NCBI GenBank assembly: GCA_964019415.1
Contig: OZ025869.1
Location: forward strand, 11,832,363-11,896,362
Reading direction: 5' to 3'
Source: Ianthella basta
Taxonomy: Eukaryota > Porifera > Demospongiae > Verongiida > Ianthellidae
Length of the DNA stretch: 64,000 bases
In this document: positions 1,955-50,962 of the stretch, piece after piece
Layout: each line of letters begins with the position of its first letter
Position numbering within the stretch: position 1 is the stretch's first letter
The notes under the pieces: generated by a model
The model's input: the letters and a program-made list of their open reading frames with translations, nothing else
Told to the model about the DNA's origin: nothing
Databases searched by the model: none
Made by a program: the position numbers and the translations under genes

Positions 1955-2704
1955 TCCTTGCATATCATGTGAAATTTGAGCGTTAAACCAATGGAAACTG
2001 TGTCCATTTAATTGGGAGCATTCCGTAGACTCACTTCATAAAAAGAACAGTTCTGTAAGATGAAGGAACTTTAAGAGGCTATTACTATCTCAGAAAACCA
2101 CTTGATGTAATGGTGCATGTACGCATGTACGTATAACACTAAACAGTATTGTGTCTCACCAGCTGGTTCATCCAGTTCCTTCAAGGTGTCTATGAAGGAT
2201 TCCACTAGTTCACTGTACCCCTTCAGATTGTGATGCTCCTTCAGAAAAGCAAAGAACAGCAGAATGGTGTGAGAGTCCTTCTGCTGTAAGCAGCTCAAAA
2301 GTGCTCAATTCCTCTCTGTCAGGTTGCGCTCACTCCTGAACTGGAGAGCTTCAATAGGTGTTAGAACCCCATTTGCTTCCATGGCTGGTACCAACAGTAC
2401 GTCAGGGAGGCGGAGAATCAAGTCAGGTGCCACCTTGCTCAAGGTAGTGCGCACCAGCTGTGCGTGCATCAGACAGGAATTCTTCTCAACTGGTAGGGAT
2501 GCTGAGGGAAGATGCAAGAAATATTGGCACAGTACCACCTACTTTCTCTTGCGTACTGCCTACACTCCAAGTACGTACTCGTACCACTTTAATTACCATG
2601 AGACTCACCAATATGAAGTGGGAGGTATGAGCACACTGTTCATCTGTTCAACTGAGTGCAAGCAGAGCAAGGGCCAAGATGTATCTGCGAATGATCACAA
2701 GTGA

Positions 2705-3492
2705 TGTAGACTTCCCCCATGCACCCAGGAATATGAAAGAGGGTAGTTATGTTAGCTGAATATGACAATAGCTAGCACACAGCATTCCCTGACAAAAACC
2801 TATTCCAACATGGCTGCATATGTCGACTCATTGATCTATAGTGGCCAATGTACAACCGCAGCAGACAAAACTTACAGCTCACACTGGCCACTGTCTAAGT
2901 TTGTGTGTAGTTTAGTTAGCTAGTTAAAATTAACTACCTGAAACAGCAACAGCGCACTAGCTAGGTGCACTGGTCTAGCTAGGGCATGTACGGAGCATCA
3001 TTGGCTTCTTCAATAAGAAGTCCATGCCACCAAATCACTAGTCAGCTGTAGTGCGGCGTATCTAGCTACCCTACAGCTTCACTACCCGTCACGGCCACAT
3101 CTCATTGCTGATGGCTCTCACCATGTGTGCACACTACCTTGCATGTGTCTTGTGAGTGACTTGAAGAAGATAAAGAAGGACAATTACAACTGTCGACTAC
3201 TACATTTCATCAAAAGACTGAGAAACTCCTAGCCATATTATATCCACCATCATTAAAACTGCTAAACCACATGCCCGCCAGGCACAGATCACTAGTATAC
3301 TGAACAAACAAAACCAATAATGATGCAGTTAGAGCGTAGCCAATTATATATGTGTACTTGCAATTGAAAGCTCAAACTGCTGCTCTTCCTGAAATTGATG
3401 CTCTATGACCACTTAATAAAATTATGATCATGAATGTGTAAGTTGGGTCTGGGTGTAGCTATGTATTAACGCATATATATGCTGAATATCCT
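2705..3492. other. Non-coding, part of segmental duplication
   Basis: No supportable gene. The stretch is recognisably homologous to 34.87-35.37 and 36.2-36.33 kb, and lacks the 0.8-kb element inserted there in copy 2. Confidence 0.6.
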
Positions 3493-4754: not shown

Positions 4755-4935
4755 ATCCATGTGAGCCGCACTACACGCTCCCTAACTCATCGCACAGCCT
4801 CAATCCACGCTCTGTCTCACTCCACGCGCTGCCTAACTCCACACGCAGCCTCAGTCTGCGCATGGCCTCTCTCCACGCGCTGCCTAACGGATACGCCTGA
4901 CTACGCGCGGCCTCTCTCCACGCGCTGTCTCACTC
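4755..4935. repeat. Minisatellite, left half
   Basis: Degenerate units of about 20 bp resemble ctcactccacgcgctgccta. The array continues at 7071-7165 on the other side of the LINE, so it was one array before the insertion. Confidence 0.7.
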
Positions 4936-4944
4936 TACGCGCTT

Positions 4945-7061
4945 ATGATAGATAGATAGATAGATATTTTATTTGACAACAGGAGTGCTGCATCTACTTC
5001 ATACGGTAGATTTTCATGCAGGTCCTGGTACAAGACAATACAGTACAGTACATAGGTAACAATGGTGAATGGATGAGTTGTCAATAGTGAATAATTGATG
5101 TACAATACACGGGTAACAATGGTGAACGCATGGATAAGTTTTAATTAAATGAATTTAAATGTACAATGAGTAGCTATAGGTAACAATGGTAAATGGATAA
5201 GTTTTAAATAAATAAATAAATAAATTTATTAATTAATTTGGTGATGGTGAGGTCTGGGTCAGATTGTATAGAGCTGTTCGAAACAACTTTCTATCCTTAA
5301 TACCTTTGATAGCTTGTGGTAAGGTGTTAAAGTGATATGCCCCTTGGTATTCAAATGTCGAGCGATAGGCATTGGTTTGAGGACGCTTTATATGCAGGTT
5401 GTTCTTTCCGCGTGTTGAGGGATAGTTAGCATTTTGGGCCGTGTTGGTACTGAACTTGGCAGTCAAGAATGCCGGTGCTCTGTTGGTCAAGCAGCGGTGT
5501 ACCTGACTTAACATAGCTAGGTGCCTTCGATGATGTAAGGTGGTCCACCCTAGCATTTGCCGGAGTGGGTGGCTTCTTGTTCTGGGTGGTTTCTGAAGGA
5601 TCACCCGCATGGCATAGTTCTGAATCCTCTCAACCCTGTCACTGAGAGTGGTGCCACAGGAATGCCAGACAACAGAGCAATAATCGAGATGTGGGAGTAC
5701 AAACGACTGGTAGAGCAGCTTTCTTATGGAACAAGGTAGGTAGTGACTTGCTCTTCTAATGAGAGCTAGCTTAGACAGGCATTTCTGTCGAACACTATCT
5801 ATGTGCTGCTGCCAGTTCAAATCTCTGTCGATCTGGACTCCTAAGTATTTCACTGTTTCTTGTTTGGTTAGTGCCTGTTCTCCAGACCGAACTACTACAT
5901 CATTGGCTCGTCTCTTATCACTCTTCTTACTGAGCACCATCAATTGGGTCTTAGCAACATTCATTTTAAGTCCATTTGCCACTATCCAATTTGCTACTCG
6001 ACCAAGATCTTCTTCTAATATGTTGCTAACACGTTTGGGATCGCTGTCTGAGGTGTAGATGGATGTATCATCAGCAAAGAGATTAACTGTACATTTCTCC
6101 ACAGCATTGGGCAGGTCATTGACAAATAGGGTAAACAGGAGTGGTCCCAAAATGGACCCCTGTGGGACTCCTCTCGTTACATTGGACCACTCGGACCTCA
6201 CTCCCTCCATTACTACCCTGAACTTCCGGTCTTGTAGATAATTAGTAAACCAGGCTAGCTCGCTTCCATTAACACCATATGCATTGAGCTTCTTTAGAAG
6301 TAGGCCATGGTCAATCGAATCAAATGCCTTGCTTAAGTCAATCATAATGGTCCCAACAATGTCACCTTTATCTATTGAGGCCTTCCAGTCATCGACAGTT
6401 CTCAGCAGGACATCTTGTGTAGAATGGTTTGGTCGAAAACCAGCTTGTACCTCATGTAACAATTTATGTGCCTCTAGATAGTCATATAACTGAAGGTGTA
6501 TGAGGGATTCAAAAACCTTAGCTAATACAGGGATCACAGAAATTGGGCGATAGTTAGTAACATCATGTTTAGTCCCCATCTTAGGTACTGGGGTTACATT
6601 CGCCTCTTTCCACTCTGTTGGAAACTGCCCCAATCTTATACTTGCATTAAATAGGTTAGTAAGGCCATGAACTATAGCTGGGGCCACCATTTTAAGGATC
6701 CTTGCAGATATCATGTCTGGACCAGTAGCTTTCCTCTCATCCAGGGTAGACAATTGCTTAAGTACCATTTCTTCGTCAATCTCAGATAGCCTGAAAGTGC
6801 TGGGAACTGTGGGTAGTGACTGTTGCATGTCAGCAGCGGGTGGAAACGGTAGATTGCTGAAGTGTTCTAGGAAACAGTCCACAATTTCTTGTGGCCTAGT
6901 TAGTGTCGTTCCTTCATGTGTCAGGGATGGGGTGAGCTTTGATTTTCCTCTGCCAAGAGCAGAGTTTAGCTGTCTCCAGACTTTTTTTGGCTGATATGAC
7001 ATACCTTTGCATACTGCTGCATAATGCTCAGCCTTCGCTTTTCGCATTCGACGATTTACTT
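4945..7061 (-). mobile_element. 5'-truncated non-LTR retrotransposon (LINE)
   Basis: The element is on the minus strand. Its 3' end is a (tatc)n tail at 4945-4968, and it is flanked by a 9-bp target-site duplication, tacgcgctt, at 4936-4944 and 7062-7070. It carries the reverse transcriptase frame 5233-7047 and about 290 bp of 3' untranslated sequence. The endonuclease half is missing, as expected from incomplete target-primed reverse transcription. The intact frame and clean duplication suggest a fairly recent insertion. Confidence 0.9.
5233..7047 (-). CDS. LINE reverse transcriptase, 5'-truncated ORF2
   Basis: The frame encodes 604 residues from the first ATG, although the coding frame continues upstream to the truncation point at about 7061, so this ATG is nominal. 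Reverse transcriptase motifs are in order: NYRPISVIPVLAKVFE near residues 165-180, DLSKAFDSID at 237-246, GVPQGSILGP at 293-302 and the catalytic FADD at 324-327. A C-terminal thumb-like region follows. No apurinic endonuclease domain is present. The product would copy element RNA at a nicked target, but this copy cannot be autonomous. The motif spelling resembles Jockey/CR1-group elements; the exact clade is not determined. Confidence 0.9.
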   Translation of the reverse strand: MRKAKAEHYAAVCKGMSYQPKKVWRQLNSALGRGKSKLTPSLTHEGTTLTRPQEIVDCFLEHFSNLPFPPAADMQQSLPTVPSTFRLSEIDEEMVLKQLSTLDERKATGPDMISARILKMVAPAIVHGLTNLFNASIRLGQFPTEWKEANVTPVPKMGTKHDVTNYRPISVIPVLAKVFESLIHLQLYDYLEAHKLLHEVQAGFRPNHSTQDVLLRTVDDWKASIDKGDIVGTIMIDLSKAFDSIDHGLLLKKLNAYGVNGSELAWFTNYLQDRKFRVVMEGVRSEWSNVTRGVPQGSILGPLLFTLFVNDLPNAVEKCTVNLFADDTSIYTSDSDPKRVSNILEEDLGRVANWIVANGLKMNVAKTQLMVLSKKSDKRRANDVVVRSGEQALTKQETVKYLGVQIDRDLNWQQHIDSVRQKCLSKLALIRRASHYLPCSIRKLLYQSFVLPHLDYCSVVWHSCGTTLSDRVERIQNYAMRVILQKPPRTRSHPLRQMLGWTTLHHRRHLAMLSQVHRCLTNRAPAFLTAKFSTNTAQNANYPSTRGKNNLHIKRPQTNAYRSTFEYQGAYHFNTLPQAIKGIKDRKLFRTALYNLTQTSPSPN

Positions 7062-7070
7062 TACGCGCTT

Positions 7071-7165
7071 CGTATGTAACTCAACACGCAGTCTCATTCG
7101 ACGCGCTCCTTCACTCTACAAACGTTTTCTCATTCCACACGCTGTCTCGCTCCACGCGTACTCAG
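7071..7165. repeat. Minisatellite, right half
   Basis: Units such as cattcgacgcgctccttcac continue the array seen at 4755-4935. The LINE insertion separates the two halves. Confidence 0.65.
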
Positions 7166-26691: not shown

Positions 26692-28507
26692 TTGTGTCTG
26701 ATCCATAACTGGAATTTCTGCTTCTTGGCTTTTTGCCTTTTACTATGTCAGACGTTTGTGAATCTCCTTGCAAGAGGGCTGTGATAATGAAAGGTGTTAT
26801 ACCATAGGCAATGGAAGACTTAGGGTTAAGACCAACAGCTTGCAATGATTTCATCACATGACATTATAGTATATTATAGATATAGCTAAGTTTGCTGGCA
26901 GGATGACACAACTTGCATGGCTCTTTTACTATTATGTATTACTAAAATGTTTACATAGTTATAGCTCCAATGCTAAATTAGACATAAAACAGGAATATTT
27001 ATGTAGCTAAGCTGGCTACTTAATAGCTCTGCACCTATACTCAGCCTACTGCTGTGTCACTATTCCTGCATAAATAATTCACAAGCACTCTACTTGCAAA
27101 AGTCTAATATAGATTAGTTTTATAGTATTTGCATGCATGCTATGAGTAACATTGATACAACTCATTGAATGGCTTCCATAGCACTGTCAAAAGCTTTGAC
27201 GCTCCAGCTAATGCATCATAGTTAATCTGACCTAGGAATACAATGCATGTTGTAGTACTACAGAAACTTGAGATCATGCACTTTGCAATAAGGATCTAAT
27301 TAATGCATCATTAATCCTTTTGCAACATGAATGCGAAGCATAAGAGAACGTGACTGTGTGGCAGGTCTGAGCTAGGTACGTATGCATACATGGAGGCTGC
27401 ATGGACACTTTCTCATACTCCCATGTCTAGCTGTTCCCTGCATACATGTAAAAAACTCTATCAGACATAAACCCTTACTCTCCAGCCGTTTCTTCATTCC
27501 CTTCCCTAACTCCTTCATTCTCTTGTTGCCCTTCACAGAACTGACTATATCGCAGAATTCCATGAAGGCATTTGCAGTGCACTTGTCCTCCAACATTTTG
27601 TGTAGACGTGCACTTTGCTGTGTTGCATCCTTTGTCTGCTCAATCAGCTCTACATCCCCGTCACTGATGATATCCGCATGTTGAAGCTCTTGTATCACTG
27701 CACTTGCATCAATTGACTTAATGAATGGGTCTCGAAATGCTTTAAGAACTTGTTCAACTGCATGCACTGAAGTGGATAACAAAGAGCAATTAATAACAAG
27801 CAAAACTTACTTTTTACATACATCTGGATAAAGGCATTTGCCTGTGTCTGTATAATTTCAATTGCAAGATGTCTCTAACAGCCCGTTTACACTGGCGGAA
27901 CGGTTCTGGACCGGTTTGGACCACCTACCCGAGGTGGTACCGTTCCGCCTGGAACGGTTCGCTTTGGAACCGTTCCACACCTGTTTACACTACAGTAAGA
28001 ACCGTTCCAGAACCGTTCCGTTGCGTAGTGTAAACGGGCTGTAAGTGCAATAAGTGAACGCGGAGACAAAACCGCAGGGCGTAGCTATAGCTAGCTATCA
28101 TAGCCTAGTTTTCAGACTGCAGACTTTCAGATGAATAGCTAGTCAGCGGCAGATCTATAGGATTTCCAAAAGGGGGGGGGGGGGTTAAAGTAGTTAGATG
28201 CACACACAGTGCCCCTGATATATAATATGTTTACCACCATGCCTCTAAAGACTGCCCAAAATTCTACATAGCACTAGCAAAAAGGGGGGTCCTTTGCACC
28301 CCTGGATCCCCTCTAGGTCCGCCACTGCTAGCTATAATATATCTGTAAGGCTGAGTACGTGCATGATACGCATAATTCACCTTGTTCCTGCCACTGATCA
28401 GATATTGGAGAGTTGGGGTTCGTAGACGATATTTCGTCTTCATATTCTCCCTCAGCCTGCAGATCGGCCAGGGGCTTTTCCAATTTTCTCCTTTTCTGCT
28501 TACTCAT
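26692..28507 (-). CDS. K-C: CARD gene 5' exons
   Basis: Exon 1 (28381-28507) starts with an ATG and encodes a short basic then acidic leader (MSKQKRRKLEK), ending in a G|GTGAAT donor, phase 1. Exon 2 (27479-27766) follows a gttatccacttcag acceptor in phase 1. It encodes a complete CARD: VEQVLKAFRDPFIKSIDAS, then VIQELQHADIISDGDVELI, then FMEFCDIVSSV, with a phase 1 donor A|GTAAGG. A third exon (26692-26838, phase 1 at both ends, basic and Ser-rich) is less certain because its acceptor lacks a pyrimidine tract. The CARD is intact although the Kelch exon 7 kb away is broken. It could therefore act as a CARD-only product, or it could be a pseudogene. Confidence 0.7.
27876..28044. mobile_element. 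PIF/Harbinger-type MITE
   Basis: The element is 27879-28041, with perfect inverted ends cagcccgtttacact and agtgtaaacgggctg, flanked by the 3-bp duplication TAA. The interior is rich in self-complementary ggaacggttc words. A 3-bp TAA target is characteristic of PIF/Harbinger. It sits in the intron between the K-C leader and CARD exons. Confidence 0.75.
28144..28328. mobile_element. MITE with cagtggcgga-type ends
   Basis: The left end, cagcggcagatctatagg, and the right end, cctctaggtccgccactg, are imperfect inverted repeats enclosing G-rich tracts. Such ends are common in miniature elements of animals. The target duplication is unclear. Confidence 0.5.
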
Positions 28508-31663: not shown

Positions 31664-32227
31664 TTAACAGAGGTAGATATTATCTCCAAAGAGTAGCAGG
31701 TGGTGAGATTGGAGTGCTTTTAGAAGTTGCAGTCCTTTGGGGCTTGTCCATTTCATGGTATTAAAGTTGTACACATCTACTTCGTTGATAGCAATGCGTT
31801 TCTTTTGTTTCCCTGCACTTTCTTGCGCTCCACCTGTAACCAGGAGAAGATGACCGTGGTGGTAAAAAAAAAAAACACTTGCTACCTGTTTTGTGGGAAT
31901 CGAAGGCAGTATTTGCCTCCACTGTCCCTGATTTGGGGGCTTGCTGGTTACTGAGTCGTGTCCTCCGATCATGGTAATTTGTCCATTGACAACCATAATG
32001 GGGGCATTGTATGATGGAGCCTCGGGCAGAGTGGACCACTGTCGTATTCCCCTCGGGTGGATATATAGTTGAAATAGACAGCTTTTCAGCACACGATCTT
32101 TGACTACTCCGGTGATGTATATTTTGCCCTTGAATAAGATAGATGAAATGACTGGTAGAGCGTAGGACATGGGCCGGTACTTCATGATGGTGCTGTTACG
32201 TGTTCTGGAGGTGGGTTGTGTGAACAA

Positions 32228-34279
32228 CTGTTGAAAATTAGAGAAAAGCACATTAATGTATGCAACCCAGATGTGTCAATTGATGCATAAGCATAAACTC
32301 CAAAAATCTGATAATCAGCCATGCAATGCATGTATATGACAACTATTATATGCGTTAATGCCTATTTGACACATGCAATTACAGGCAGGCACTGACTGAG
32401 GCCTATGTGGCTAGCCACCACCCCACACTTTTCTTTATCGTATGTACTGGGGCAGGGAACTCAGTAGACTGAGGGTATACCAGCTACACTGCAAGTTGTC
32501 TATGAATGTAGTCGATAATATCACACTCTTATATGATCATTTAAATTCCACCAGCATCACTTGGGTAGCACTGAGTGCTGAGTTGGGTGAACAAAAGACC
32601 AACTAGTGCTAGAGAGGGGATGCATTGAAGGGCCTCGGCAAGCTTGTTGGGGAGGAAATACAAACGTACCAAGCAAATGAATCATATAGAATGTGTATAC
32701 ATTAAATATGCATTGTAACATTAACTCCTCTGGGTACTGGCATGCAAAACACTGAACTATAACCTCCCTAACCAAAGAGGCAGCAAGACCAAGAAAGGTT
32801 GCGTTATGTACAGACCACTATCTACATTATTATGCAGTTAAGGTTGTGGAGGGATAGGGAGGACTGGGGGACAGGTGGGTTGTACACATGGGTGAGACAG
32901 TGAGGGCTTGGGGAAGAGGGGGGACAGATAAGGGGACAGGAGAGGGGACAGGTGGTTGTGACAGTAAGGGGGTGTGATAGGGGACAGGTGAGGGGGACAG
33001 GTGGAGGAACAGGTAGGTGGTACAGGTGGGTGGAACAGTGAGGGTTCAGGGAAGAGGGGGAAAGGTAAGGGGACAGGTAGTTGTGACAGTATGTAGGGGT
33101 GGGGTGGTGATACAGATAGGAGACAGTTGAGGGGGACAGGTGGGGAGAATGTGAGAGGGGACAGCAATGTTTCTAGCCTCATGGAGGGGTCTTTTGGGAG
33201 CAAGAAAGGTTCTGTACCCTTCAAAAATAGCCTAGTGAGAACATCAGTATAGTGTCACTGTACTTGTATTCGCATAGTCGCATTATAACCATATTCATGG
33301 AGGGTATAATTGTATTCATGGCATTCAAGATGGAGTTTCGCCTTCTACCATGTCCGCACAAAATCAAGAACATGCCCTAAGGGCAAACATTTCAGAGCTT
33401 GTATTTATTTCAATTTATTGCAATTGGCAAGTTGTTGCAGCTTCCATGGATCTGCATGCATTCTCTATCAGAGCCACCATAACTAATATTTCATTTCAAT
33501 AGCTTTCAATTTAGCTATTCATTTTGCAGGGCCACAATTTCGCACTGAGTTCACTATTCCAAAAACTGATTACAGCAAGACTAGTTGCACAGCATTAGTC
33601 AATGAGCTACAGGTAGGGTGGGGCCAGTCCCTGTCCACTGCTTCCACTATTTCATTTGCACTCCATCATCCCAACCCGACTTCACACCTCGTACATATGT
33701 TTGGTAAATGCACCCTGTCTTGATTTCTCATGGATGCACACTGCACAAGACAACTACGGAAAACTTCCACACTCTTTCCAAGGGTATGATGTAATGTAAT
33801 AGTGGAAGCCATGGAAGGGAGCTGGCCATGCGAGATTACTTAACTATGGGAATGCACCATATATACCAAAGAGTGTGTAAAAATGTTTCCTCCAAAAACA
33901 AGGGCAGATGTAGGGGTGGCAGTGTGTCGCTAAATGGCATGGCAAACCACCTGGCAGAAAAACCGTAAGAACAGGCCGGTTCATGCAAAGACGAGGGCCA
34001 GCCTGTCCATGCAAAACCCAGATCATTAACATTCACTGACTTTGAACACATTCAGTGCACCATCTCTACATCTGGCAACATATTGTGGTTTGCAGGGGTC
34101 TCATGGCAGAGCAAGATGACTACATAAGAGATGAATTAATCCAAAGAATATGGAGCCTGCAACTTACAAGGGAGGTAACAAGAAATGTATACATTTGTCA
34201 CTGCCACAGCAGCAAACACAAATGCCATCATCAAGGAATATTTTAGACATCCACAAATAGTCACATTGCAGAAGCAGGG
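32228..34279. other. Intronic region of K-D
   Basis: No membrane or spacer exon was recognised. It contains the G-rich minisatellite at 32850-33160. The proline-rich frame on the minus strand there is a product of the repeat. Confidence 0.45.
32850..33160. repeat. G-rich minisatellite
   Basis: Irregular units around ggggacaggtgg/tggtac are repeated for about 300 bp. Confidence 0.8.
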
Positions 34280-35375
34280 TTTTCTACAATGCTCATCTGC
34301 ATGAAAACAATACAAGCCCTCAGAAAGTGAGTGACTTCCTTTGCAACCCGCAAAGCATGAGATGGTGGAAGCTTCCAAATGTACGCACACACACAATGTG
34401 CGCCTTCAAAACAGCAAAGAACAGCAGAATGGTGCAAGAATCCTTCCGCAGTAAGCAGCTCAAAAGTGCTCGATTCCTCTCTGCTAGGTTGCACTTGCCG
34501 CTGAACTGGAGCACTTCAATAGGTGTTAGAACCCCATTTGCTTCCATGGCTGGTACCAACAGTCCATCGGGGAGGTGGAGAATCACGTCAGGTGCCACTC
34601 TGCTCAAGGCAGAGCGCATCAGATGTGCATCTGACAGGAATTCCTCCCAACTGGCAGCATTGCTGAGGAAGAAGCAAGGAACATTGGTATTATAATACCA
34701 CCTACTTCCTGGACTCTTTTGTGTACTACCTACGTACACTCCAAGTACTTACTCATACCACTTCAGTTACCATGAGATTCACCAATTGAAGTGGGAGGCA
34801 TGAGCACACTATTCATCTGTTCGATCAACTGAGTGCAAACAGAGCAAGGGCCAAGATGTATCTGCGAATGATTAGAGTGATGTGAACTTCCCTATCCCTC
34901 ATTTATATGAAAGAGGGTACCTAACTAGCTAACTCAGCTGAATATGATATACTTAGCTAACACACATCATCCCCTGACAAATGCTGTAATTATATGTACA
35001 AATTTGACACGCCCGCACATTATGCCTACTCCCTGACCGGTAGTGACTGAAGTACAGGAGCGACAGACAAACTTACAGTTCACACTGGCCAAATGCAATC
35101 TCCAAGTTTGTGTGCAGTTTAGCTACGTAGCTATATACCTAGGCCTGAAGTAGCGACAGCGCACTAGCTGGTCTAGCTAGGGCATGTACAGAGCATCACG
35201 CAGTGGCTTCTTCTTCTGGACCGTCAATGCACCAAATCTCTAGTCAGCCATAGTACGTGCACGTGGTTAGAGTATCTAGCTATCTAATATGCTATACTCC
35301 TGACCTTCACAGAAATAGCTACTCGGCACGGCCACATCTCATGGCCAGTCACCCTAATCGCGTGCCAACATTACC

Positions 35376-36466: not shown

Positions 36467-39400
36467 TTACAAAAGCACAACCTCTACAGATGAAGATTTC
36501 TTTGTTAACATTTTTGCATCCTCATCTCCTTTTCCTTGGCCTTCCACATATCCTCCAGCAATAAACAGTGCTGCACCACGACCCCCGACTGGTACAACCG
36601 CATGGCGAAACTTTCCTACACTCATTTTGCCTACTTCAATCCAATCATTGTCACCTTTCACAAACTCAAAGATAGTTCTCTGGGTTGTGTTATCTTTCAT
36701 ACCACCAACGGAAATGAGAGAATTTTTGCAAAGAACAATTGTGGGACGTAGAAAAGGAGGGGCTGTTATTTGTGTCCACACACTCTTCTCGGTGTCAAAG
36801 GGCTGTTTGATGACTTCTTGGATATGACTCCATCGCGCTCTCCATGCCTGATGGTTAAAGAGATCCTTCTCATCATGTGAGGCAGGAAATCTAGTTGCAC
36901 CAGCCGCAAGGTAGACATATTCTTCAAAGACGACCACGTGATGTGATCGTAGTGGCTTCGGAAGTTCCAGTGCTTTATAAGATCTTAAGTACCAACTCCT
37001 CGTGCTGAGGTCGTACACATCTACTGAGTTGACAACTCTTTTTCCTTCCATAGACTCCACTACTCCCCCTGTCACCAGAAGCAGGTTGTCGTGCTGGCAA
37101 ACACCACTCGCCAATCGTCTTGTAGGCATGGGAGGTAGTATTTGTTTCCATTCATGCTCAATCTCAAGCCAAGTAAACAGAGTATTAGTAACATTTTCAG
37201 TTTCTGCATCTCGCCCTCCAATCAAAGTAATGTGGTTGTCAATGACCGCAATGGGTGCATTGTAATTTGGAGCTGGTTTCACTACAGGAGCTTCAGGCAG
37301 TGTAGACCATTTCCTGCCAGCTAGAGAATAAACCTGCACTTGTCGGCTCTGTGATAGTTCGTTAGCATCTTCGGGGGCAATCCCAGTGATGTACACCTTA
37401 TCCTTTAGCAAGACGGACGAAATCACTTGCAGTGCAATGGGAATGGGTTGAAGGTTCATGACGGTACTACCAGATGAAGTGGGCTGGATGGCAAATACAT
37501 ACAAGGAGACAATTAACATACGTATCAAGTCAAGATATAGGCTCATATATGAGCTGTAATCTATATATTCTTGTATGCAGAAGTTATCAGACTGATACAT
37601 GCATTATTGCGCCTGTGCCACATCAAACAAAATACATTATGAGAAAAAAGTCAATGATGGCAATTAGTGCACTACAATTTTGAATATAGATCTAGGCTTC
37701 CAACATGCACTGATAATTAACCACATTTAGTGCTGATCACGTGATCACCAGCCAATGGGATCCTATATATCGGTTCACCATAAAGCATAAATCACTTAAA
37801 GTGCACTATCAGCTAGATAGCCAAATAGCAATTTGTTCAGCTCGGTTCCACAGAATGACATTCTCTGGAATAGCGAGCTAGTCAACGACACTGAATAGGA
37901 TGATTACCAGCTCTATCCGCATATCCGTGCCAAAGAGCAGAAGTTGACAGTGTGGGGATGGGCATATGGAGTGAGGTGGGAGCACCTTTACCGTGTCCAG
38001 AGCGGTGAAAAGGCTGGTCACGTACTTGTTGCTACTTCCATATTGGATACGTCGGCTGGAGATGTGGCACACCAGTTGGAACATTAGCCCTGAAGGCCCT
38101 GAAGGAAAGTCTTGGGAGGTACACAAAAGATGTCTGGTCGCTGTCCGCAGTGTTGCGCTCAGTGGGACAATGAATTGAGGGAGTGCAATGTCTCTCTCCA
38201 CTGAACTGAGCAAATTATTACAGTGGAACTTCAGAAATAACACCACCATCCGAGCCATCAAAAGTGGTCTTATTTTCGAGGTGGTCTTAATTCTGAGAAC
38301 CATAATTCATGCATACATGGATTTGGGACTAAACCAAAGCGGTCTTATTTCTAAGGTGGTCGTTCTATAGAGGTGGTCGTTTAGCAGAGTTCCACTGTAC
38401 ATAACAACAAGTTACCTTTGAATCCAATGGGCCTGAGGTCATGCAATCAGCACTAATACAAGTAGACCATGTTAGCAGGTGCTGTGCTGTCTATATACGT
38501 ATAGCACTCTCAGATGACCAGTAAAGGTCACGATTGCATAATGCACTCACCTAAAGCTTGTGCATTACATAACCTTGACCTTTATTGCATCATCCTCGAA
38601 CACTAAGATTAAACAGCTTACACTCTACCAACCATGGTCCAAAAATTACTTAACTGAGACATAATAGGCTAAAGTTTGCCGATGACACTCTAGCCTTTTG
38701 AGTTTGGCTATATAGCTAAAATGGGATGCCCCAGGAAATAATGGATCAGTGTGTGTTGCTCATGTATACTCCTTGTTCAATTTGACCAGATGCCACCCCA
38801 ACTTGATATGCTGGGCAGTGGCACAAAAAGAACATGACAACTAGATGGCTGAATATAATCAACGAGTCATTCGTGAGACATCGTGGCTTACAGGGATTGC
38901 TGAAAATGTGTTAGAAATTGTTTCAAAATGCAAGCTGGTGCAGTCAAAACATGTACAACTATACACATTACATTGCATATACACGCGACATTGCTCCACC
39001 TTTCAAATTTTGGAAGATATATCTGCCCATACTTAAACACGGCGGATAAGGAGACACCAAACCATCCCAAAAATCACCTCTGGCATTTCAGATAGTAGAG
39101 CACCATGTTCTGATGACATGCCAATACTTGAGGAAGGACATGATGTAGGACCTGGATGTACATGGTGGATAAAGACAGCAAGGCCCATGAATGCACTAAT
39201 ACCATGCACTGTATAATCAAGTTAAGATGCAAATTACCCAAACGTTGCAGTTGCATACTGTTAAGGTGACATATATACACCTTCTTCTGAATTATCTAAA
39301 TACACTTGCTATGGGAACACACATTTACACAGAGATTCTAAATCTGGTAGAAGCACTCAAATTGCTTGTCGTGATTCTGCATACAGTGGACACATGGTAC

Positions 39401-41600
39401 AGACAGATTGAGCATGACAATAAAATCCTGAACACGTATGTTGTGGACAGATTACACTGTACAGACGTTGCATTATGACATCACATCTTGTATGGCTTAT
39501 AATTGCCGAGCGGCGAGCGTAAGCGAGCAAAGCGAGGCCATTGATCACTGTCTATTTGAGCCTCGGTGATATATATATCCAATATTTGTATCCCACGACA
39601 TGTGACTGCTCATGTGACTCTGTCACATGACGGCTCGTCTTTTCAATGGGTGCTTTTGCTCCTGTTCGGCCGCTCATCTTTGCCAGCATGCTCCTGCGGA
39701 TCAGGGCACAGAAGGAGAGCAGATGGGAATGGCAACGACGTGGCTGGGTCCAGCACGCTGAGGGGGCCACACTGCAAGACAGTGCGCGCGACTTGATACA
39801 GAGACAGCGGGGCAAAGATAGGCCAGACTAGAAGCGAATGCGGCAGAATGGCACAAGGCTACTGGCCTCGGCGACGGACGAGCAGTGTCAGTCCAGGCTT
39901 GAGGAGCTTTGGCAGTAACAAACAAGGCCCTTGGCTACTAAGACAGCTCCAGTCTGTAACAGCACATTACACTTGTCTACTGGCCACGTACTATTCATGC
40001 TGCGAGGCAATTCTTACGCGCTTAGCGTATGCCTAGTTATATAACGGCTCCTCAGCAGAGACAAATTCTTCTACAGTGCATGGAATCTATCTAAGATGGT
40101 CACTGTGTTAGGCAGCCACCTATCTAAAACAGCCAGCCTCCCTGGCCCCCAATAGCACTAAAGCATTGCAATCTACCTCTGTAGAGCAGCATAAGGGTCA
40201 GTTATAACTGGCTCACAGGTGGTTGTTTTAGACAGGTTCCACTGAATATCAATACACACTCTTATACATACGTACATACAGCACACTCCATGTGCCTATA
40301 TACAAAGGTACACAAAAAGCAAATTTGATGGAAGTAGCAGCTTACCTGGAATTGAAGATGTGTCAATGTGATCTTGGATGTGCCCAGTATCAGTAGAATT
40401 TCCAGGGAAGTAACATGGACCACACACTAGTGTCATTACTGCAGCGGAACACACAAAACCGAACACCAAGAGTGCAATGAGGCATCTGCAGTTAGCCTGG
40501 TTGTAAAATCGAGGCCTTCCAGATGGTTCTCCTGTGAGTATAAAAAGATGATCACATTCACTGAAGGTGAGGCTAATTACAGAGAGTGATAATTAAGGTA
40601 GTTGTTAACGTGTGTACACACTAGCCTGTTCCCAGGCCATCCACGTAAATTAGCATATGGGCTGAAGTGACTTTCTCCCCCCACACTATTTAACACAGAC
40701 GTTCTGGGAACAAGGCAACTGTACACACACACTAGTGTGTGTTACATGCCAGACACTGGAAACAAACACTGCATCATGATCAGTATTCAATGCACTGATT
40801 GAGTGCTGTCAGCCTGACTAGAAGAATCTATAGGCTGCCTCAGCTGTTAGACCCCACTGTTCAATATCGCTCAGGGGGCATGCAGAACAGAAGAGTAAAA
40901 GGTGACAATAGCTTCTCGGCACTAATTCTCTTCTGCCACTTTGTGATAATGAGAATATATAGGTCAAGTAGCTCACCATATAGGATTCACTTATTGACAC
41001 ATTCACACTTCACACAGAAGACAATACTCACCACCTGAGGTCCTTCTTCCACGACTGTCCTCCATATTCTGAATAGCCTGTTCATCTGCTGACATGACAT
41101 GAGAAGGGGTTACAGAAAGAATAAGATACAAAATGCTTGCTTCGCTGCATATCAACGACATGCAAAGGCACAGTAGTAAGAATAGTGAAGAAGGGCATGA
41201 ACCATACAGAACAGAACCTCCATATCATTTGTAAGCCATGCCATGTCATATATTACGTAATGGAATCAGGATGGGTGAATCACACCATACCTTGATTTGC
41301 ATACTCTCGCCTGAACTGCTTGGCCTTCTCTTCAATTTCAGTGGCCCAAATCTCATTCCCACTCTCTCTCAGTATCTTAAGGAATGCGTCAAATTCTTTG
41401 TTGCCTTTCTTCCGTAAGACCTCAATGATCCTTCCCACCCGCTTGAGCCGTCCCTCTAATGCTTCCACAGATATCCTATCAATCTCTGTCATGAATCCAC
41501 CCGCTGGTTTCTCTAATAGAGGTATGAGTCCTGTCAAACTGAGGTTCGGCTGCAACTTGTGCTCAAGGCTAACTATTGCATCTCTCTTCCAACCGTCCAT
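36467..41600 (-). CDS. K-E: CARD-transmembrane-Kelch protein
   Basis: Five exons: 41291-41600, 41032-41088, 40346-40531, 37908-38200 and 36467-37483. They total 1863 bp (620 residues), with GT-AG junctions in phases 1, 1, 1 and 0. Residues about 8-98 are a CARD (LSLTGLIPLLEKPAGGFMTE, then NKEFDAFLKILRESGNEIWA). A basic linker (SRGRRTSGGEPSGRPR) precedes Cys-Arg-Cys and one membrane segment at about 139-160 (LIALLVFGFVCSAAVMTLVC). An Asn-Ser-Thr glycosylation site lies at 167-169. Residues 185-282 are not recognised. Residues 283-620 form a six-bladed Kelch propeller (HITLIGGRDA, LLLVTGGVVE, YVYLAAGATR, SLISVGGMKD, KFRHAVVPVGG, ALFIAGGYVEG, closing strand VEVVLL). Basic residues before the membrane predict cytosolic CARD and external Kelch (type II). 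A signalling receptor role is inference. Confidence 0.85.
38219..38399. mobile_element. TA-flanked MITE family, copy 2
   Basis: Ends tacagtggaacttc and gagttccactgta. It sits in K-E intron 4, with its edge 19 bp from the exon 4 acceptor at 38200, so it has replaced most of the normal branch-point region. The internal sequence (gtggtcttat words) differs from the other copies. Confidence 0.7.
38400..40071. other. K-E intron between membrane and spacer exons
   Basis: No further exon is required by the phase model. A GC-rich patch at about 39640-39930 holds overlapping unassigned frames and is probably element-derived. Confidence 0.5.
40072..40247. mobile_element. TA-flanked MITE family, copy 3
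   Basis: Ends ctacagtgcatggaatct and gacaggttccactgaata. Internally it shares ccagcctccctggcccc and gcagcataagggtcag with copy 4. It lies in the same K-E intron as copy 2. Confidence 0.7.
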
Positions 41601-46310: not shown

Positions 46311-49300
46311 TTACAATATCACAAGCTCTGCAGATGTGGACATTCTGTACAGCTCATGATCATCTTGCAATGAATTTCCTTCCACAAATCCACCAGCAAC
46401 AAACAACACAGCACCACAATTCCCAAGTGGCACAGCAGCATGGCGATACCTCCCTACACTCATGCTCCCCACTTCAATCCAAGGTTTGTCAACCTTCTCA
46501 TATACAAACTTGTAGATAGCTCTCTGAGGTGATCCACCTTTCAAACCACCAACTAACAGGAGTGAATTATTGCACGAAATTGCGGTAGAGCGTACATTCG
46601 GAGGATCTGCTATTCTGCTCCATACATTCCTCACAGGCTGTGGCTGCTGCATTGCTGTGGCCAGTTGGACAGCCTCTCTCACATCACTCCACTTAGCTCT
46701 CCATGCCTCTGAATTAAAGTGCTTCTTCCCATCTTCAAATCGGGTCGGAAATGTAGTTGAACCACCAGTGAGGTACACATACTCTCCACAGAGTACCAAG
46801 TCATGTGATCGCAGAGGTTTCGGGAGTTGAAGTGCTTGAGGAATGCTCCATTTCTCTCCGGTTTTAGTGTTGTACACATATACAGTATCACGAACTCTAA
46901 ATGGGCGTCCTCTTGATGTACTTTCTTCTACTCCTCCACTTACTAGAAGAAGGTCATCATGGTAACAAACACCGCTTGCCAATTGTCCTGTAGGCATTTT
47001 AGGAACTATTTGTTTCCATTTATTTTCATCTTCAAACCAGTTGGACACAACATTTGTGAGCTTTATTCCTTCTTCACTTCCCCTGATCAATGCGATTCGA
47101 CCATTGATGACTGCTATGCGTGCATTATAGTTTGGAGCCTTAGGCAGCACAGACCACCTACTGTCATTAAGAGAGTACACCTGTACTTGAGAACTGCCTG
47201 GTTCCTTATCAGTGGCAATACCAGTAATATAGATGTTGCCATTCAATAGAGTTGATGAAATCACTTGCAGCTCAATTGGCATTGGCGGCAAATTCACAAT
47301 GGTAGTCTGTTGAGGGCTGTGCTTTGACTGGTTGTGTCTCTGTATATAGAACAATAACATTTGATGCATGTACGTCTACTCTATAGCTACATCAACTATC
47401 TATGTGGATAGCACATGTTAACCAGACCACAGGGGCATTGCTATGCCATAGCTACAAACACATGCCATATATGCAGTGGCAATATAATGGGCTTTAAATT
47501 TGGTTGTGCAGTTTCAGAAAATATTCTAAATTTACTACAACACCAATATTTCTGTCCATATACACACTATATAGCTATATACAGGTGTACCATATGGCTG
47601 GACATTTGTGTCAGCACTTTTGTGCAAACATAGTTTCCCTGTATAGTACTCTTGTAGCTGGATGCGCCGGGCCTATAGGTTAATTGTTGGCATGGAGTTC
47701 ATAACCGACAGCCGCGCACGAGGACACTATGTTTCCAAATGGTTTAGGACACCAGAGGTAGGAGAAGAGCTGTCTCGACTAGTCAGTGTGAGGAAGCCAA
47801 AGGCAACCCGAACGGCATCACTGTGAAGACTGACGCTGATATCATTGTTGGTAACTTACTGTGGAAGATTTCGGCAGCCTTTTCTCTGTTTCTGTGTTGG
47901 AGCGGTACGATTCTGTGCAAAGTCAGAGACAGCAAACACAAGCATCAGTAGATCTACCAAAAGAGGCTTAGATTCTCCTTTGTACGCTGAAGAAATGGTG
48001 GACCAGGCTAAGAATTGGAATAAAAAGAGTTCAAATATCGTCAAACAACAGCATGTGTACTCCGCAACTAGTCAGGCGTCGCGTGACCCCTCCTCGCGGA
48101 AGGGTCAGGTTAAGTCTAATACATTGACTTGTGCAGCACGCCACAATGGTTGCGTGCCCAATCAGATTGCAGGAAAGGTGTGAAATATTTATCGCTCGTG
48201 TGTTCGCAAATGGCAGCAGACCAGAGCATGGACCAGAGAATGTTATACGCTGCGACGGAAGCCATCCAGCGCCTTGGTTGTTCTACCATGAAGCCAGAGC
48301 AACTTCAGGTCGCGTCTGGCATCGTTTCTGTGAGAGATGTTTTCGCTGTTTTGCCGACCGGCTTCGGCAAGAGCCTGTGCTACGCGTGCCCGCCGACAGT
48401 GTTCGTCCTGGTGTTGCTGGTCGAAGGGACATCAATAGTCTTTGCTGTTGCTCCTTTGACGGATATTATGAAAGATCAGGTTAAGTGTTGCGAGCCGTCA
48501 CACGTACTTGCGGCCACAAACGAGGCATAATGTTACACAATAATTACATTCCACAGCGCGTAATTGCATTCCGCGTGCACAAGTCAATGTATTAGACTTA
48601 ACCTGACCCTTCCGTGAGGAGGGGTCACGCGACGCCTGACTACTCTGCAGCCACAGTTCATTATCATTGCAAAGTAGCTCTTGCTCATTCCTGATTAGCC
48701 ATTTTGCTATGAATATCATTATGGTATAAGGCTTGCCACACCGCCAAAGTACATTCCACCAAATGCCATAATTTCATCAATCCGCCAAAATTTCCAGCCA
48801 TACGGTATATAGTAGGCTGACCATGTTACATGCAGTCTATGCAATTATCCATCATCAATATGGACCCAAGTAGGTACAGAGGGATGAGCTGCAACACCCT
48901 CACAAAGACGCAGTGTAGGTTAATAAATGTGTGAATGAGTTCTTGTGCTTAATGGGATCCCACTACTACTAATATGTGAGCGGATTTGACAAAAGGGGCC
49001 ACTTGTAGCCATGTATAAATTGTCATTACAGACGAAAACATGCAACCAATTGATATTTTAGTAAATTTGGAATTTTGCGTTTTCGTACCTGCGACATCGT
49101 CACAGCACCCTGGCCATGTTTGAAACCCGTAGTCCTTGCCTGTGTTTCAAACCAGGAAGAATAGTTACGCTGCCGTCATGTTTACGAATATATTAACGGA
49201 AGGGTTATGGGTGGTTTTCTCATAATTGCACTGGACGTTTTTTCAAACTTTGAGCAAGTGTATCTTGAGAACTGGAGCAGTTATTCAAGCGCAGCAAAGA

Positions 49301-50962
49301 GCTCATCTACTGTACTTCCACCCAGTACCGCTAACTCAAAATCGACAAATATACACAAGTGGGCCCTTTTGTCATATCCGCTCACATAATATTATGGTAT
49401 CCACTCCATGCACACCTGATTTTGACTTTACCTGATTTGGAGGCAGTGGCCATGGAGTGGCAAGAATAGATGCCTGGATTGATGTAGAATCTTGACTCAC
49501 TGCATGGGATAAGGACAACATCATAATATTTATGTATGGATCACTGATGCACAGATCTAGATAATGTATGGAGCCTATACACAAGTACAGTAAGCAGTGG
49601 TCATACACACTATAGGGACAAATGTATCATCAAAAGCTACAAGAGCAAAGATAATACATTCTAATCAATAGATCCCATTGCCATGGTAACGCGCATCTAA
49701 ATGATGATTCCAAATCTCACAGAAGCATTCCAATGGATACTAAATCCCGTACACGTACATTGTGGGCAGAGTGCGCCTGAGGTTTATATGATGTCAGCAC
49801 AGCAATTTTGTATCTGCATGCTGTAATATGTGATTCTCCCCATGAATTACTCATTCAGTTCTCATCAAATGGCATCCCTACGAAGTCCCCTGAAGTAGGC
49901 ACGGTCAAGCCCATCTTGTTATAGCAGAAGTGGCAATGCCAAGTTACAGACAGGAAATGATGCTTGACTTGCCAGGGCAATGCAACCCGGGCCCATGCAG
50001 AATGTTGCACAAAACTTCCATCTCCTCAGGGGTTCCTAGGGTAACTAGCTAGCTCTATCCATTCATTCATTGCACACTGAAAGCACCTCCAAAACTTGCA
50101 CATTGAGTACAATTTATGCAGTCTACTTATATAAAGGAATCATTCTGCCAGACTGGGAATACTTGTCAAGCACAGCCTGGTCTGCATCAGAAACTGAAAC
50201 AGATCACTCATTCCTATTTGGCCAAAGATTTAATACTTTGGAAGTTTGGGTTCATGCCTGATCACTGATGCATGGTCAAGGGCATATGTACCAGTTATAC
50301 CACACAGAAGTGTGATGCAATAGTCATACTACTTTGGGCCTGTGCTAATCAGGATAGTACAGCTCCAGTGTATGAATCATTGTTAATGTGATAGCTACCT
50401 ATGATCAAACGTGGACACTTAAAAGGGACGAAAACACCTTTAGCAAGTTGCCAACGGTCCCCTAAAGTGTCAGCAGCGAGGTGAAACATTCAGTGACATT
50501 GGGGCCCTATACAGGTGAAGGTACCTTGTGTAGGAAAGGGGCTTACACAAAATCTTCAAGCACACAGTAGCTTTGCAGAAATATTATAATTGCAAAATCT
50601 TCAAGCAAGGAGCATTTGCAAAATACACATACCCTGAAAATTTGTACACATACAGTACACGTCATGAGCATGACACCTGATACAGTGATGTAGACATGCA
50701 GACATACCTGTGACTGTGGATAAGTCTCTATTATCCTTAAACCAGAGCATTGGCAAGCCATTCAAGAAGACGTCATGAATCCAGATGGAAGTGAATGGCC
50801 AGGGGAGATTACTAGGAATGCAAAATGGGGTTAGGGTCCCAGCAAGAACAATTAACAAGACAATAGATATGCATCTGCAGGCATTCGGACAGCTTGGGGC
50901 AGTATTTTCAGAGTCAGACTGGCTCACACATGGGTCAGATGCCACCAGATTTTGTTGATGTA
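46311..50962 (-). CDS. K-F: transmembrane-Kelch gene, 5' end not found
   Basis: Three exons are supported. The membrane exon, 50708-50962, enters and leaves in phase 1. It encodes CPNACRCISIVLLIVLAGTL, a membrane segment after the same Cys-Arg-Cys motif seen in K-E. A spacer exon, 49432-49574 (phase 1 to 0, AATCAG|GTAAAG donor), has 47 codons; it is assigned by phase and position only. The Kelch exon, 46311-47339 (phase 0, after ttctatatacag), has 343 codons and an intact six-bladed propeller: LQVISSTLLNGNIYITGI, DDLLLVSGGVEES, YVYLTGGSTT, SLLLVGGLKGG, RYRHAAVPLG, AVLFVAGGFVEG. One propeller site reads ALIRGSEEG where paralogues have LIGG. No CARD exon was found above 50962; a TIR element begins at 51054, close to where it might lie. 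Confidence 0.7.
47340..48068. other. K-F intron sequence
   Basis: A small plus-strand frame at 47692-47826 (44 codons, starting MEFITDSRARGHYVSKWFRT) and another at 47845-48183 look coding-like but are unassigned. They lie just left of the RecQ-carrying element and may be further captured or element sequence. Confidence 0.35.
48060..48651. mobile_element. Pack-MULE-like element carrying a RecQ fragment
   Basis: Element 48069-48642 (574 bp) has 67-bp inverted ends (48069-48135 and 48576-48642) with one mismatch visible, starting tagtcaggcgtcgcgtgacc. The flanking 9-mers ctccgcaac and ctctgcagc match at seven of nine positions, fitting an aged 9-bp target duplication. The interior is mostly a helicase gene fragment. 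The structure resembles Pack-MULEs known from plants. It lies inside the K-F intron in the opposite orientation to K-F. Confidence 0.75.
48210..48530 (+). pseudogene. RecQ-family helicase N-terminal fragment
   Basis: 106 residues from an ATG at 48210. The order is that of a RecQ/DEAH helicase start: LGCSTMKPEQLQVASGIVSV (Q-motif region), FAVLPTGFGKSLCY (Walker A, Thr-Gly-Phe-Gly-Lys-Ser) and APLTDIMKDQV (motif Ia). It then stops before the DEAH box, so it cannot be a working helicase. The fragment fills the space between the inverted repeats and was most likely captured from a host or element gene. Confidence 0.8.
48652..49431. other. K-F intron sequence
   Basis: No exon or bounded element was recognised. 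Confidence 0.4.
49575..50707. other. K-F intron sequence
   Basis: A minus-strand stretch at about 49860-50030 keeps an open frame of about 55 codons (containing HHFLSVTWHCHFCYNKMG) without recognised splice ends. It may be an unassigned exon or chance. Confidence 0.35.

What the first reader, a model, noticed from the sequence alone, without database searches (positions are those of the whole stretch)
36467..41600. A CARD-transmembrane-Kelch protein, an architecture I do not recognise
Five exons join in matching phases to give 620 residues: CARD, basic linker, Cys-Arg-Cys, one membrane helix, an unknown 97-residue domain and a six-bladed Kelch propeller. CARD is a death-fold adaptor domain normally in cytosolic signalling; Kelch propellers bind ligands. 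A type II protein linking an external Kelch to a cytosolic CARD would be a new kind of innate-immune or cell-death receptor. Domain calls and phases are seen in sequence; topology and role are inferred.
Basis: partly seen in the sequence, partly recalled or inferred. Interest (0 to 1): 0.9.

Follow-up and report, generated by a model that had tools for sequence, protein, structure and literature searches.

The report
Sponge CARD–membrane–Kelch receptor-like gene family

Summary
Partly confirmed, and larger than the finding. On the minus strand the CARD exon (41600–41291), membrane-helix exon (40531–40346) and Kelch exon (37483–36467) are constrained coding exons with paralogues. The '97-residue domain' (38200–37908) is an artefact: its DNA is interspersed repeat (39 other scored copies). 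Membrane exons end in phase 1 and Kelch exons start in phase 0, so a 1→0 exon is needed; paralogues point to 39151–39078, a Pro/Ser-rich stalk. The corrected model, CARD–linker–TM–stalk–Kelch, has 546 residues with matching phases. The gene lies in a tandem array; six units show a phase 1→1 membrane exon 5' of Kelch. The death-fold exon differs between units. Elsewhere the same Kelch follows CARD plus an unknown domain (17 of 27 such domains) or a protein kinase. Best reading: type II membrane receptors with a cytosolic death fold and a Kelch ligand-binding ectodomain. Single gene about 0.7, receptor role about 0.5; topology rests on charge alone. A separate CARD–TM gene with its own stop is a live rival. 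My paper searches found no such architecture.

The parts
41291..41600 (-). exon 1, start codon and CARD (103 residues), ends in phase 1
   Evidence: PF00619 22.9 bits; profile to Apaf-1 CARD E 8.1e-6; 150 genome matches scored, itself included; dN/dS 0.30 and 0.28 against two paralogues
41032..41085 (-). exon 2 (tentative), 18-codon basic linker, phase 1 to 1
   Evidence: splice signals and phase only; no counterpart found in the 68 loci then held; exon 1 also joins exon 3 in phase without it
40346..40531 (-). exon 3, juxtamembrane Cys-Arg-Cys and one membrane helix, phase 1 to 1
   Evidence: one other match genome-wide at E<=10, C2:11724732-11724893, 65% identity; dN/dS 0.56 over 59 codons; length difference of 30 nt, in frame, and top hit of a scan for phase 1-1 hydrophobic exons
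39078..39151 (-). corrected exon 4, Pro/Ser-rich stalk of about 25 residues, phase 1 to 0
   Evidence: acceptor, donor and open frame kept in two paralogues, with no indel in L010 and a 21-nt in-frame deletion in P40; U52 and U55 have an 86-nt Pro/Gln exon with the same phases between TM and Kelch
36467..37483 (-). exon 5, Kelch propeller of 338 residues and stop codon, starts in phase 0
   Evidence: PF24681 69.9 bits; phase-0 acceptor; dN/dS 0.42 against P40; 119 genome matches, itself included
   Evidence: 39 other scored copies of the surrounding DNA; absent from the paralogue loci held
46317..47360 (-). Kelch exon of the neighbouring unit (Win3)
   Evidence: 54% match; alignment A2
50708..50962 (-). 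membrane exon of the Win3 unit, phase 1 to 1, with the motif ACRC before the helix
   Evidence: hydropathy and splice scan
34168..34296 (-). membrane exon of the Win2 unit, phase 1 to 1
34323..34748 (-). open frame with a divergent CARD-like stretch, Win2 unit
   Evidence: it was a seed of the local HMM; Pfam CARD only 12.5 bits, below cut-off
31667..32275 (-). truncated Kelch exon of the Win2 unit (probably decayed)
27375..27806 (-). open frame with a second-type CARD-like exon, 70% identical to the one of unit P40
   Evidence: local HMM 62.7 bits; genome match; Pfam CARD_2 18.4 bits, below cut-off

Best explanation
The locus encodes one member of a tandemly expanded family of single-pass membrane proteins: an N-terminal cytosolic death-fold domain (here a CARD of the Apaf-1/NOD1/RAIDD kind), a short basic linker, a Cys-Arg-Cys juxtamembrane motif, one membrane helix acting as a signal anchor, a short Pro/Ser stalk, and a C-terminal Kelch propeller (probably six blades) as ectodomain. 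Inferred mechanism: the propeller binds or is clustered by a ligand (microbial or self surface), which brings CARDs together under the membrane so that they nucleate CARD-CARD assemblies with a downstream CARD protein (adaptor or caspase) and start a defence or cell-death response. Units in the cluster carry different death-fold exons, which could be exchanged because death-fold and membrane exons are phase 1-1 modules. Shown: domains, order, strand, splice-phase compatibility, constraint, family expansion. Inferred: transcript joins, topology, ligand binding, downstream signalling.
For: CARD identity. Membrane exon: a scan of 3.8 kb of this unit and 8.2 kb of unit P40 returned only the two paralogous exons. 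The only other TM match in the genome lies about 5 kb 5' of the closest Kelch paralogue. TM and Kelch similarity matrices of six units agree (r 0.65, reached by 29 of 720 permutations). Kelch exons begin at phase-0 acceptors (25 of 30 loci show one with a good pyrimidine tract) and no methionine near the start is conserved, so they need an upstream coding exon. TM exons end in phase 1 in the six units read, so they need a downstream coding exon. A small 1-to-0 exon lies at that place in Win, P40, U52 and U55, and is kept in the L010 unit. CARD and Kelch are co-oriented: 28 of 119 Kelch exons have a same-strand CARD within 10 kb 5', none an opposite-strand one. A sister subfamily on C3 has CARD, middle domain, PQ exon and Kelch with matching phases in the two units read; 24 of 27 middle domains have a CARD-B 5' and 17 of 27 a Kelch 3'. 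Charge rule in the window gene and P40.
Against: No transcript. Conserved order in a tandem array would also arise if a CARD-TM gene and a Kelch gene were duplicated as a pair. In both Win and P40 a 50/55-nt intron-like gap after the TM exon leads to a short frame that stops at the matching place (GTWSVLYVRMYKSVY* and GRWYAVYKYMSVY*), which could be a terminal exon. 17 of 119 Kelch exons also have a same-strand CARD on the 3' side within 10 kb. P40 has a different CARD type, so the CARD-to-TM link is looser than TM-to-Kelch. The closest CARD paralogue (84%) lacks the region of exons 2-3 and has an interrupted Kelch (my reading of the match order). In P40 the 5' flank of exon 4 (86%) is no less conserved than the exon (81%); exon 4's donor is not optimal (GAG|GTGATT); exon 2 has no outside support. 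Kelch sequons are at chance and cysteines few. No TM was found in the w27 and 11736k units by the scan, and none seen in the C3 units read.
Confidence: 0.6

Rival explanations
1. Two neighbouring genes: a short MAVS-like CARD-TM protein that anchors a CARD to a membrane, followed by a separate Kelch gene; the pair was duplicated together. (An alternative end of the same gene would be a milder form.)
For: Order alone cannot exclude it. In Win and P40 the TM exon is followed after 50 and 55 nt by a conserved acceptor and a short frame that stops at the matching place. The death-fold type differs between Win and P40 while TM and Kelch match.
Against: Kelch exons begin at phase-0 acceptors without a conserved start codon; a 1-to-0 exon bridges TM and Kelch in Win, P40, U52 and U55; on C3 CARD, middle and Kelch exons chain in phase.
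Confidence: 0.25
2. The Kelch is cytosolic or faces an organelle lumen: the helix anchors the protein to an internal membrane (ER, mitochondrion) and the protein is a scaffold or Kelch adaptor rather than a surface receptor.
For: Sequons at chance and few cysteines in the Kelch; sister families carry the same Kelch behind CARD-middle exons or a kinase, with no TM seen in the parts read.
Against: Positive charge on the CARD side of the helix in Win and P40; the Pro/Ser stalk follows the helix directly.
Confidence: 0.25
3. A decaying relic: a chance order of exons in a degenerate tandem array, no working protein.
For: Several neighbours are broken (Win2 Kelch truncated, the Kelch at w9.2 kb with one stop, L010 unit interrupted).
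Against: All five exons of the window unit are open with usable splice sites; dN/dS 0.28-0.56 on CARD, TM and Kelch.
Confidence: 0.1

Closest known systems
Sponge NLRs (CARD/DEATH-NACHT-LRR), e.g. Dysidea avara (PMC12909245, abstract and passages seen)
   Same: expanded families in sponges with CARD or DEATH N-terminus and a C-terminal repeat sensor; membrane-bound forms are mentioned there
   Different: no NACHT or LRR found in the window exons scanned; the sensor is a Kelch propeller beyond a membrane helix
Sponge 'gene containing Ig domains and a CARD domain' (PMC6208332, passages seen)
   Same: a CARD on a protein with Ig, often extracellular, domains in a marine sponge transcriptome
   Different: Ig instead of Kelch; no topology or gene structure given in the passages seen
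MAVS (recalled)
   Same: N-terminal CARD plus one membrane helix
   Different: MAVS is tail-anchored with nothing beyond the helix; here a stalk and propeller are proposed to follow
Type II C-type lectin receptors such as Dectin-1 (recalled)
   Same: cytosolic N-terminal signalling part, signal anchor, C-terminal ligand-binding ectodomain, feeding a CARD pathway
   Different: ectodomain is C-type lectin, and the CARD is in a separate adaptor (CARD9)
Attractin/LZTR1-type and KLHL/Keap1 Kelch propellers
   Same: fold by sequence: PF24981 50.8 bits, at its cut-off of 50, and PF24681 69.9 bits; Keap1 among PDB matches
   Different: these proteins lack a CARD (recalled)

Membership tests
CARD (PF00619) | match to the CARD profile | tested here: met
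   window exon 22.9 bits against a cut-off of 23.9, narrowly under; its C3 relative in L072 26.1 bits, over it; 25 of 25 relatives, itself included, match at E<=0.01; family profile to Apaf-1 CARD 8.1e-6
CARD (PF00619) | six-helix death fold | not testable with these tools
   structure prediction switched off
Kelch propeller | Kelch motifs with GG doublets and conserved W/Y | tested here: met
   invariant G90, G139-140, G260-261, G310-311, W59, W164, W281 in 12 aligned copies
Kelch propeller | six blades | tested here: inconclusive
   six repeat positions readable by eye; best PDB matches are named SAKe6; no model built
NOD-like receptor | NACHT domain with LRRs | tested here: not met
   no such domain in the CARD, TM and Kelch exons scanned against Pfam; unrecognised further exons cannot be excluded
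MAVS-like | CARD with C-terminal tail anchor and no ectodomain | tested here: inconclusive
   depends on whether TM joins stalk and Kelch or the short terminal frame
Type II membrane receptor | positive charge on the N-terminal side of a single helix | tested here: met
   net +3 against -1 (Win), +4 against 0 (P40); Win2 +1 against 0, with only four residues on the far side
Type II membrane receptor | extracellular C-terminus | tested here: inconclusive
   sequons at chance

The most novel reading that the evidence does not exclude
The genome carries a combinatorial family of membrane receptors in which a Kelch ectodomain on a common TM-stalk cassette is paired with interchangeable death-fold exons (CARD type B, CARD type A, Death-like), built by shuffling of phase 1-1 exons in tandem arrays, next to CARD-CARD-Kelch and kinase-Kelch relatives: a Kelch-based innate recognition system used in parallel with NLRs.
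Probability: 0.4. Interest if true: 0.85.

Novelty: new variant of a known kind. Interest (0 to 1): 0.62.

Why it matters
If the joins hold, this is a receptor layout in which the ligand-binding propeller and the CARD sit in one membrane protein, within a large tandem family. It would give a testable case of how early animals built germline-encoded receptor diversity outside NACHT-LRR and Toll architectures, and would name Kelch as a candidate immune recognition domain in sponges.

Tried and rejected
Direct TM-to-Kelch joining: rejected, phases 1 and 0 do not fit. A membrane helix in the frame just upstream of the Kelch acceptor (37603-37484): set aside, because P40's frame is closed there without another usable acceptor. 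Other bridging exons: one search lists 10 candidate rows conserved between Win and P40; 39151-39078 is not among them (the alignment has a gap at its acceptor) but is the third-ranked pair. I prefer it because U52 and U55 have an exon of the same phases and Pro-rich make-up at that place and L010 keeps 71 of 74 bases. The 20-nt candidate 39257-39238 and the 38-nt candidate 40295-40258 are not excluded. Extracellular Kelch by sequons: no support. A 'Death domain' in unit U52: no Pfam match; best PDB match the CRADD death domain, E 0.02, so it is called Death-like only. Structure prediction: tool off. Pfam on the membrane exon and on the 285-residue middle domain: nothing. Paper searches for CARD or death fold with Kelch listed no such architecture; the phrase search returned one paper, on rice. 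The library holds open-licence PMC papers only.

Invalid rows: the TM and C3 CARD-B lines used wrong frames and were redone. In one search, 8 of the 15 C8 pairs (10-89 codons) compare different frames and are ignored; a ninth, L065-L066 (361 codons), compares the kinase frames. In one search exon 2's end was one base off and was corrected. The P40 read-out missed the exon and was redone. In one search one CARD-A stretch is masked.
Full report
What was given. The parts lie on the minus strand. The window is C2:11832363-11896362 of an unnamed 209 Mb genome in 96 contigs.

CARD. The exon 41600-41291 gives 22.9 bits to PF00619, just below the cut-off of 23.9, and it is not among the 110 PF00619 matches listed for the genome (150 of 367 candidates scored). 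Single-sequence PDB matches are weak but include the CARDs of CARD11 and RAIDD (E 0.11). With 24 relatives aligned (7 other CARD loci held were left out) the profile matches Apaf-1's CARD, residues 1-84, at E 8.1e-6, and 25 of 25 members match PF00619. The same exon type has 150 scored matches, itself included, of 375 candidates in the genome.

Kelch. The exon 37483-36467 is a complete propeller by Pfam. PDB matches are led by designed proteins named SAKe6, then Keap1 (best 60 of 88 shown). The genome holds 119 matches to it, itself included, many as single open frames of about 320-390 residues in tandem arrays on C2, C3 and C8.

The false exon. Its DNA belongs to interspersed repeats: 40 scored matches of 403 candidates, 39 besides itself, on many contigs and both strands, 72-95% identical. 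No paralogue locus held at the time has it. I do not count it as a domain.

The membrane exon. Exon 3 (40531-40346) has one other match in the whole genome at E<=10, C2:11724732-11724893, 65% identical. That place is about 5 kb 5' of the Kelch exon closest to ours (66% identical, C2:11718548-11719537). I call that unit P40. The two TM exons are 186 and 216 nt long, a 30-nt difference in frame, keep phase 1 at both ends, and have dN 0.20, dS 0.36 over 59 codons. A scan for strong phase 1-1 hydrophobic exons, made without reference to homology, was run on five stretches: in the window unit it found only this exon, in P40 only its counterpart, in the 11736k and w27 units nothing, and in the Win3 stretch an exon at 50962-50708 with the motif ACRC just before the helix as in ours, plus a weaker one at 54639-54556. 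Over the whole window it gave 3 hits on the minus strand and 2 on the plus strand; the latter two and 54639 look unrelated, so real sequence gives more false hits than the 5 in total seen over 20 Markov sequences of 64 kb. So six units have TM 5' of Kelch on the same strand, all phase 1-1; in two others none was found and in the L010 unit the region is missing.

Phase logic. The window Kelch exon starts in phase 0 (CCATCCAG|CCC). A phase-0 acceptor with at least 10 of 16 pyrimidines lies at the 5' end of the exon in 25 of 30 Kelch loci examined; acceptors of other phases occur there in 15 of 30 (my count; the copies are not independent). The six C8 copies and L041/L042 are the clearest: the in-frame stop that opens the frame is the TAG of the acceptor itself. 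No methionine near the start is conserved. TM exons end in phase 1. One more 1-to-0 exon is therefore required if the gene is single.

The corrected exon 4. In U52 and U55 an 86-nt exon stands between TM and Kelch, with good acceptors, the donor CAG|GTACA, phases 1 to 0, and the peptides HQDPSSGPTPGTDPTFAHSMMYQPPHQQ and HKVPTREPRPSTDPYFAHSIVYQPPHQQ. In the window the corresponding place holds 39151-39078, 74 nt, GPTSCPSSSIGMSSEHGALLSEMPE, phases 1 to 0. The L010 paralogue keeps it with 71 of 74 bases, acceptor and donor; its 5' flank is 68% and its first 3' flank 92% identical, with 17 and 18 gapped bases. P40 keeps acceptor, donor and frame with a 21-nt in-frame deletion (53 nt), but there the 5' flank (86%) is no less conserved than the exon (81%). 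This support is good, not proof; one search lists 10 other conserved candidate rows.

Corrected protein. 310+54+186+74+1017 nt including the two split codons' parts in exon sums, 546 residues plus stop in 1641 nt. Helix from residue 139; four sequons at 19, 166, 305, 473. Charge around the helix fits CARD inside in Win and P40. Kelch sequons are at chance in all 12 Kelch exons tested (lowest P 0.21).

Constraint. dN/dS: CARD 0.28 and 0.30 (two pairs), Kelch Win-P40 0.42, TM 0.56.

The family. I compared 119 Kelch places with 190 CARD places: all 150, 37 of the 110 (those I judged near Kelch arrays), and three. 28 of 119 Kelch exons have a same-strand CARD within 10 kb on the 5' side with no Kelch between; 17 have one on the 3' side; none has an opposite-strand CARD on either side. 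Within 15 kb the counts are 29 (5' same strand), 24 (3' same), 0 (5' opposite) and 1 (3' opposite). CARD detection is capped, so these are lower bounds. A sister group on C3 has CARD-A, CARD-B, a 285-residue middle domain without Pfam match, a Pro/Gln exon and Kelch, with phases that match in the two units read (CARD-A seen in one, masked in the other). Of 72 middle-domain matches I used 27 rows; two partial pieces with 58 and 74% identity and the more distant rows were left out. 24 of 27 have a CARD-B 5' within 2.5 kb, 17 of 27 a CARD-A, 17 of 27 a Kelch 3' within 10 kb, all on the same strand; 11 of those 17 also have a CARD-A. 3 of 27 have a Kelch on the 5' side (with typed subsets: 29 of 150 CARD-B, 23 of 110 Pfam places and 46 of 119 Kelch places).

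Different N-termini. P40's CARD-like exon (70% identical to the one at w27806-27375) is not of our CARD type, and Pfam supports it only weakly (CARD_2 13.7 bits, below cut-off). U52 has, about 1.8 kb 5' of its TM exon, a 94-residue phase 1-1 exon whose best PDB match is the CRADD death domain (E 0.02) and which has 150 scored matches of 451 candidates in this genome. Pfam gives it nothing. In the C8 array a protein kinase exon (PF07714 112.5 bits) precedes the Kelch. The Kelch exon looks like a shuffled sensor module.

How far the link goes. TM and Kelch similarity matrices over six units agree (r 0.65, 29 of 720 permutations as high). The window unit and the L010 unit share CARD type, stalk exon and Kelch in the same order. 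Against: co-duplication of two neighbouring genes could give the same picture, the death-fold type is not fixed, and in both Win and P40 a short frame after the TM exon stops at the matching place behind a conserved acceptor, which would suit a CARD-TM protein that ends there.

Literature. Dysidea avara is reported with 39 CARD and 128 DEATH domain genes and NLR forms with CARD, DEATH or a membrane helix (PMC12909245, passages including part of the abstract). A sponge transcript with Ig and CARD domains, and separate Kelch-motif genes, respond to microbial patterns (PMC6208332, passages). PMC12465263 (passages) has no mention of Kelch. Searches listed no CARD-Kelch or death-fold-TM-Kelch protein in the open-licence library; I saw listings only, apart from these three papers. 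Dectin-1, CARD9, MAVS and attractin comparisons are from recall.

Verdict. A constrained exon set in a large family; the architecture CARD-TM-Kelch is likely, with a corrected fourth exon; the receptor role is the best inference.

Noticed in passing
L063-L067, upstream of the Kelch exon; C8:1.46-1.60 Mb array: A protein kinase exon (PF07714 112.5 bits in L065) precedes a Kelch exon of the same family in tandem copies: a likely kinase-Kelch gene family.
   Followed up: partly
C3:11.59-12.22 Mb, e.g. L072 (CARD-A 6871-7164, CARD-B 4804-5112, middle 2293-3147, Kelch 169-1128): CARD-CARD-middle domain-Kelch genes in tandem; the 285-residue middle domain has no Pfam match and 72 genome matches.
   Followed up: partly
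L058-L062 (C3:3.50-4.15 Mb): Kelch copies with intact frames and dN/dS of 1.0-1.7 in 9 of 10 pairs (the tenth has dS 0; several dS values are tiny): possible diversifying selection.
   Followed up: no
genome-wide: Death-fold exons are hugely expanded: three query types each reached the limit of 150 scored matches, and PF00619 gave 110.
   Followed up: no
L070 (C2:11732000-11741400): A CARD exon, then ankyrin repeats, then a Kelch exon, same strand; may be CARD-ANK-Kelch or neighbouring genes.
   Followed up: no
L010/L044 and L011/L043: Two copies of a CARD...Kelch unit exactly 97,247 bases apart and nearly identical: recent segmental duplication or an assembly duplicate.
   Followed up: no
window 40346-40230, minus strand, and P40: A 50/55-nt intron-like gap and a short frame with a shared stop directly after the TM exon: a possible alternative end of the gene.
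   Followed up: partly
L013/L014 2466-3299: Open frame resembling the end of a retrotransposon reverse transcriptase next to a CARD exon (by eye).
   Followed up: no
L036 418-1410: Open frame with what looks like a SMAD MH1 domain beside a CARD exon (by eye).
   Followed up: no
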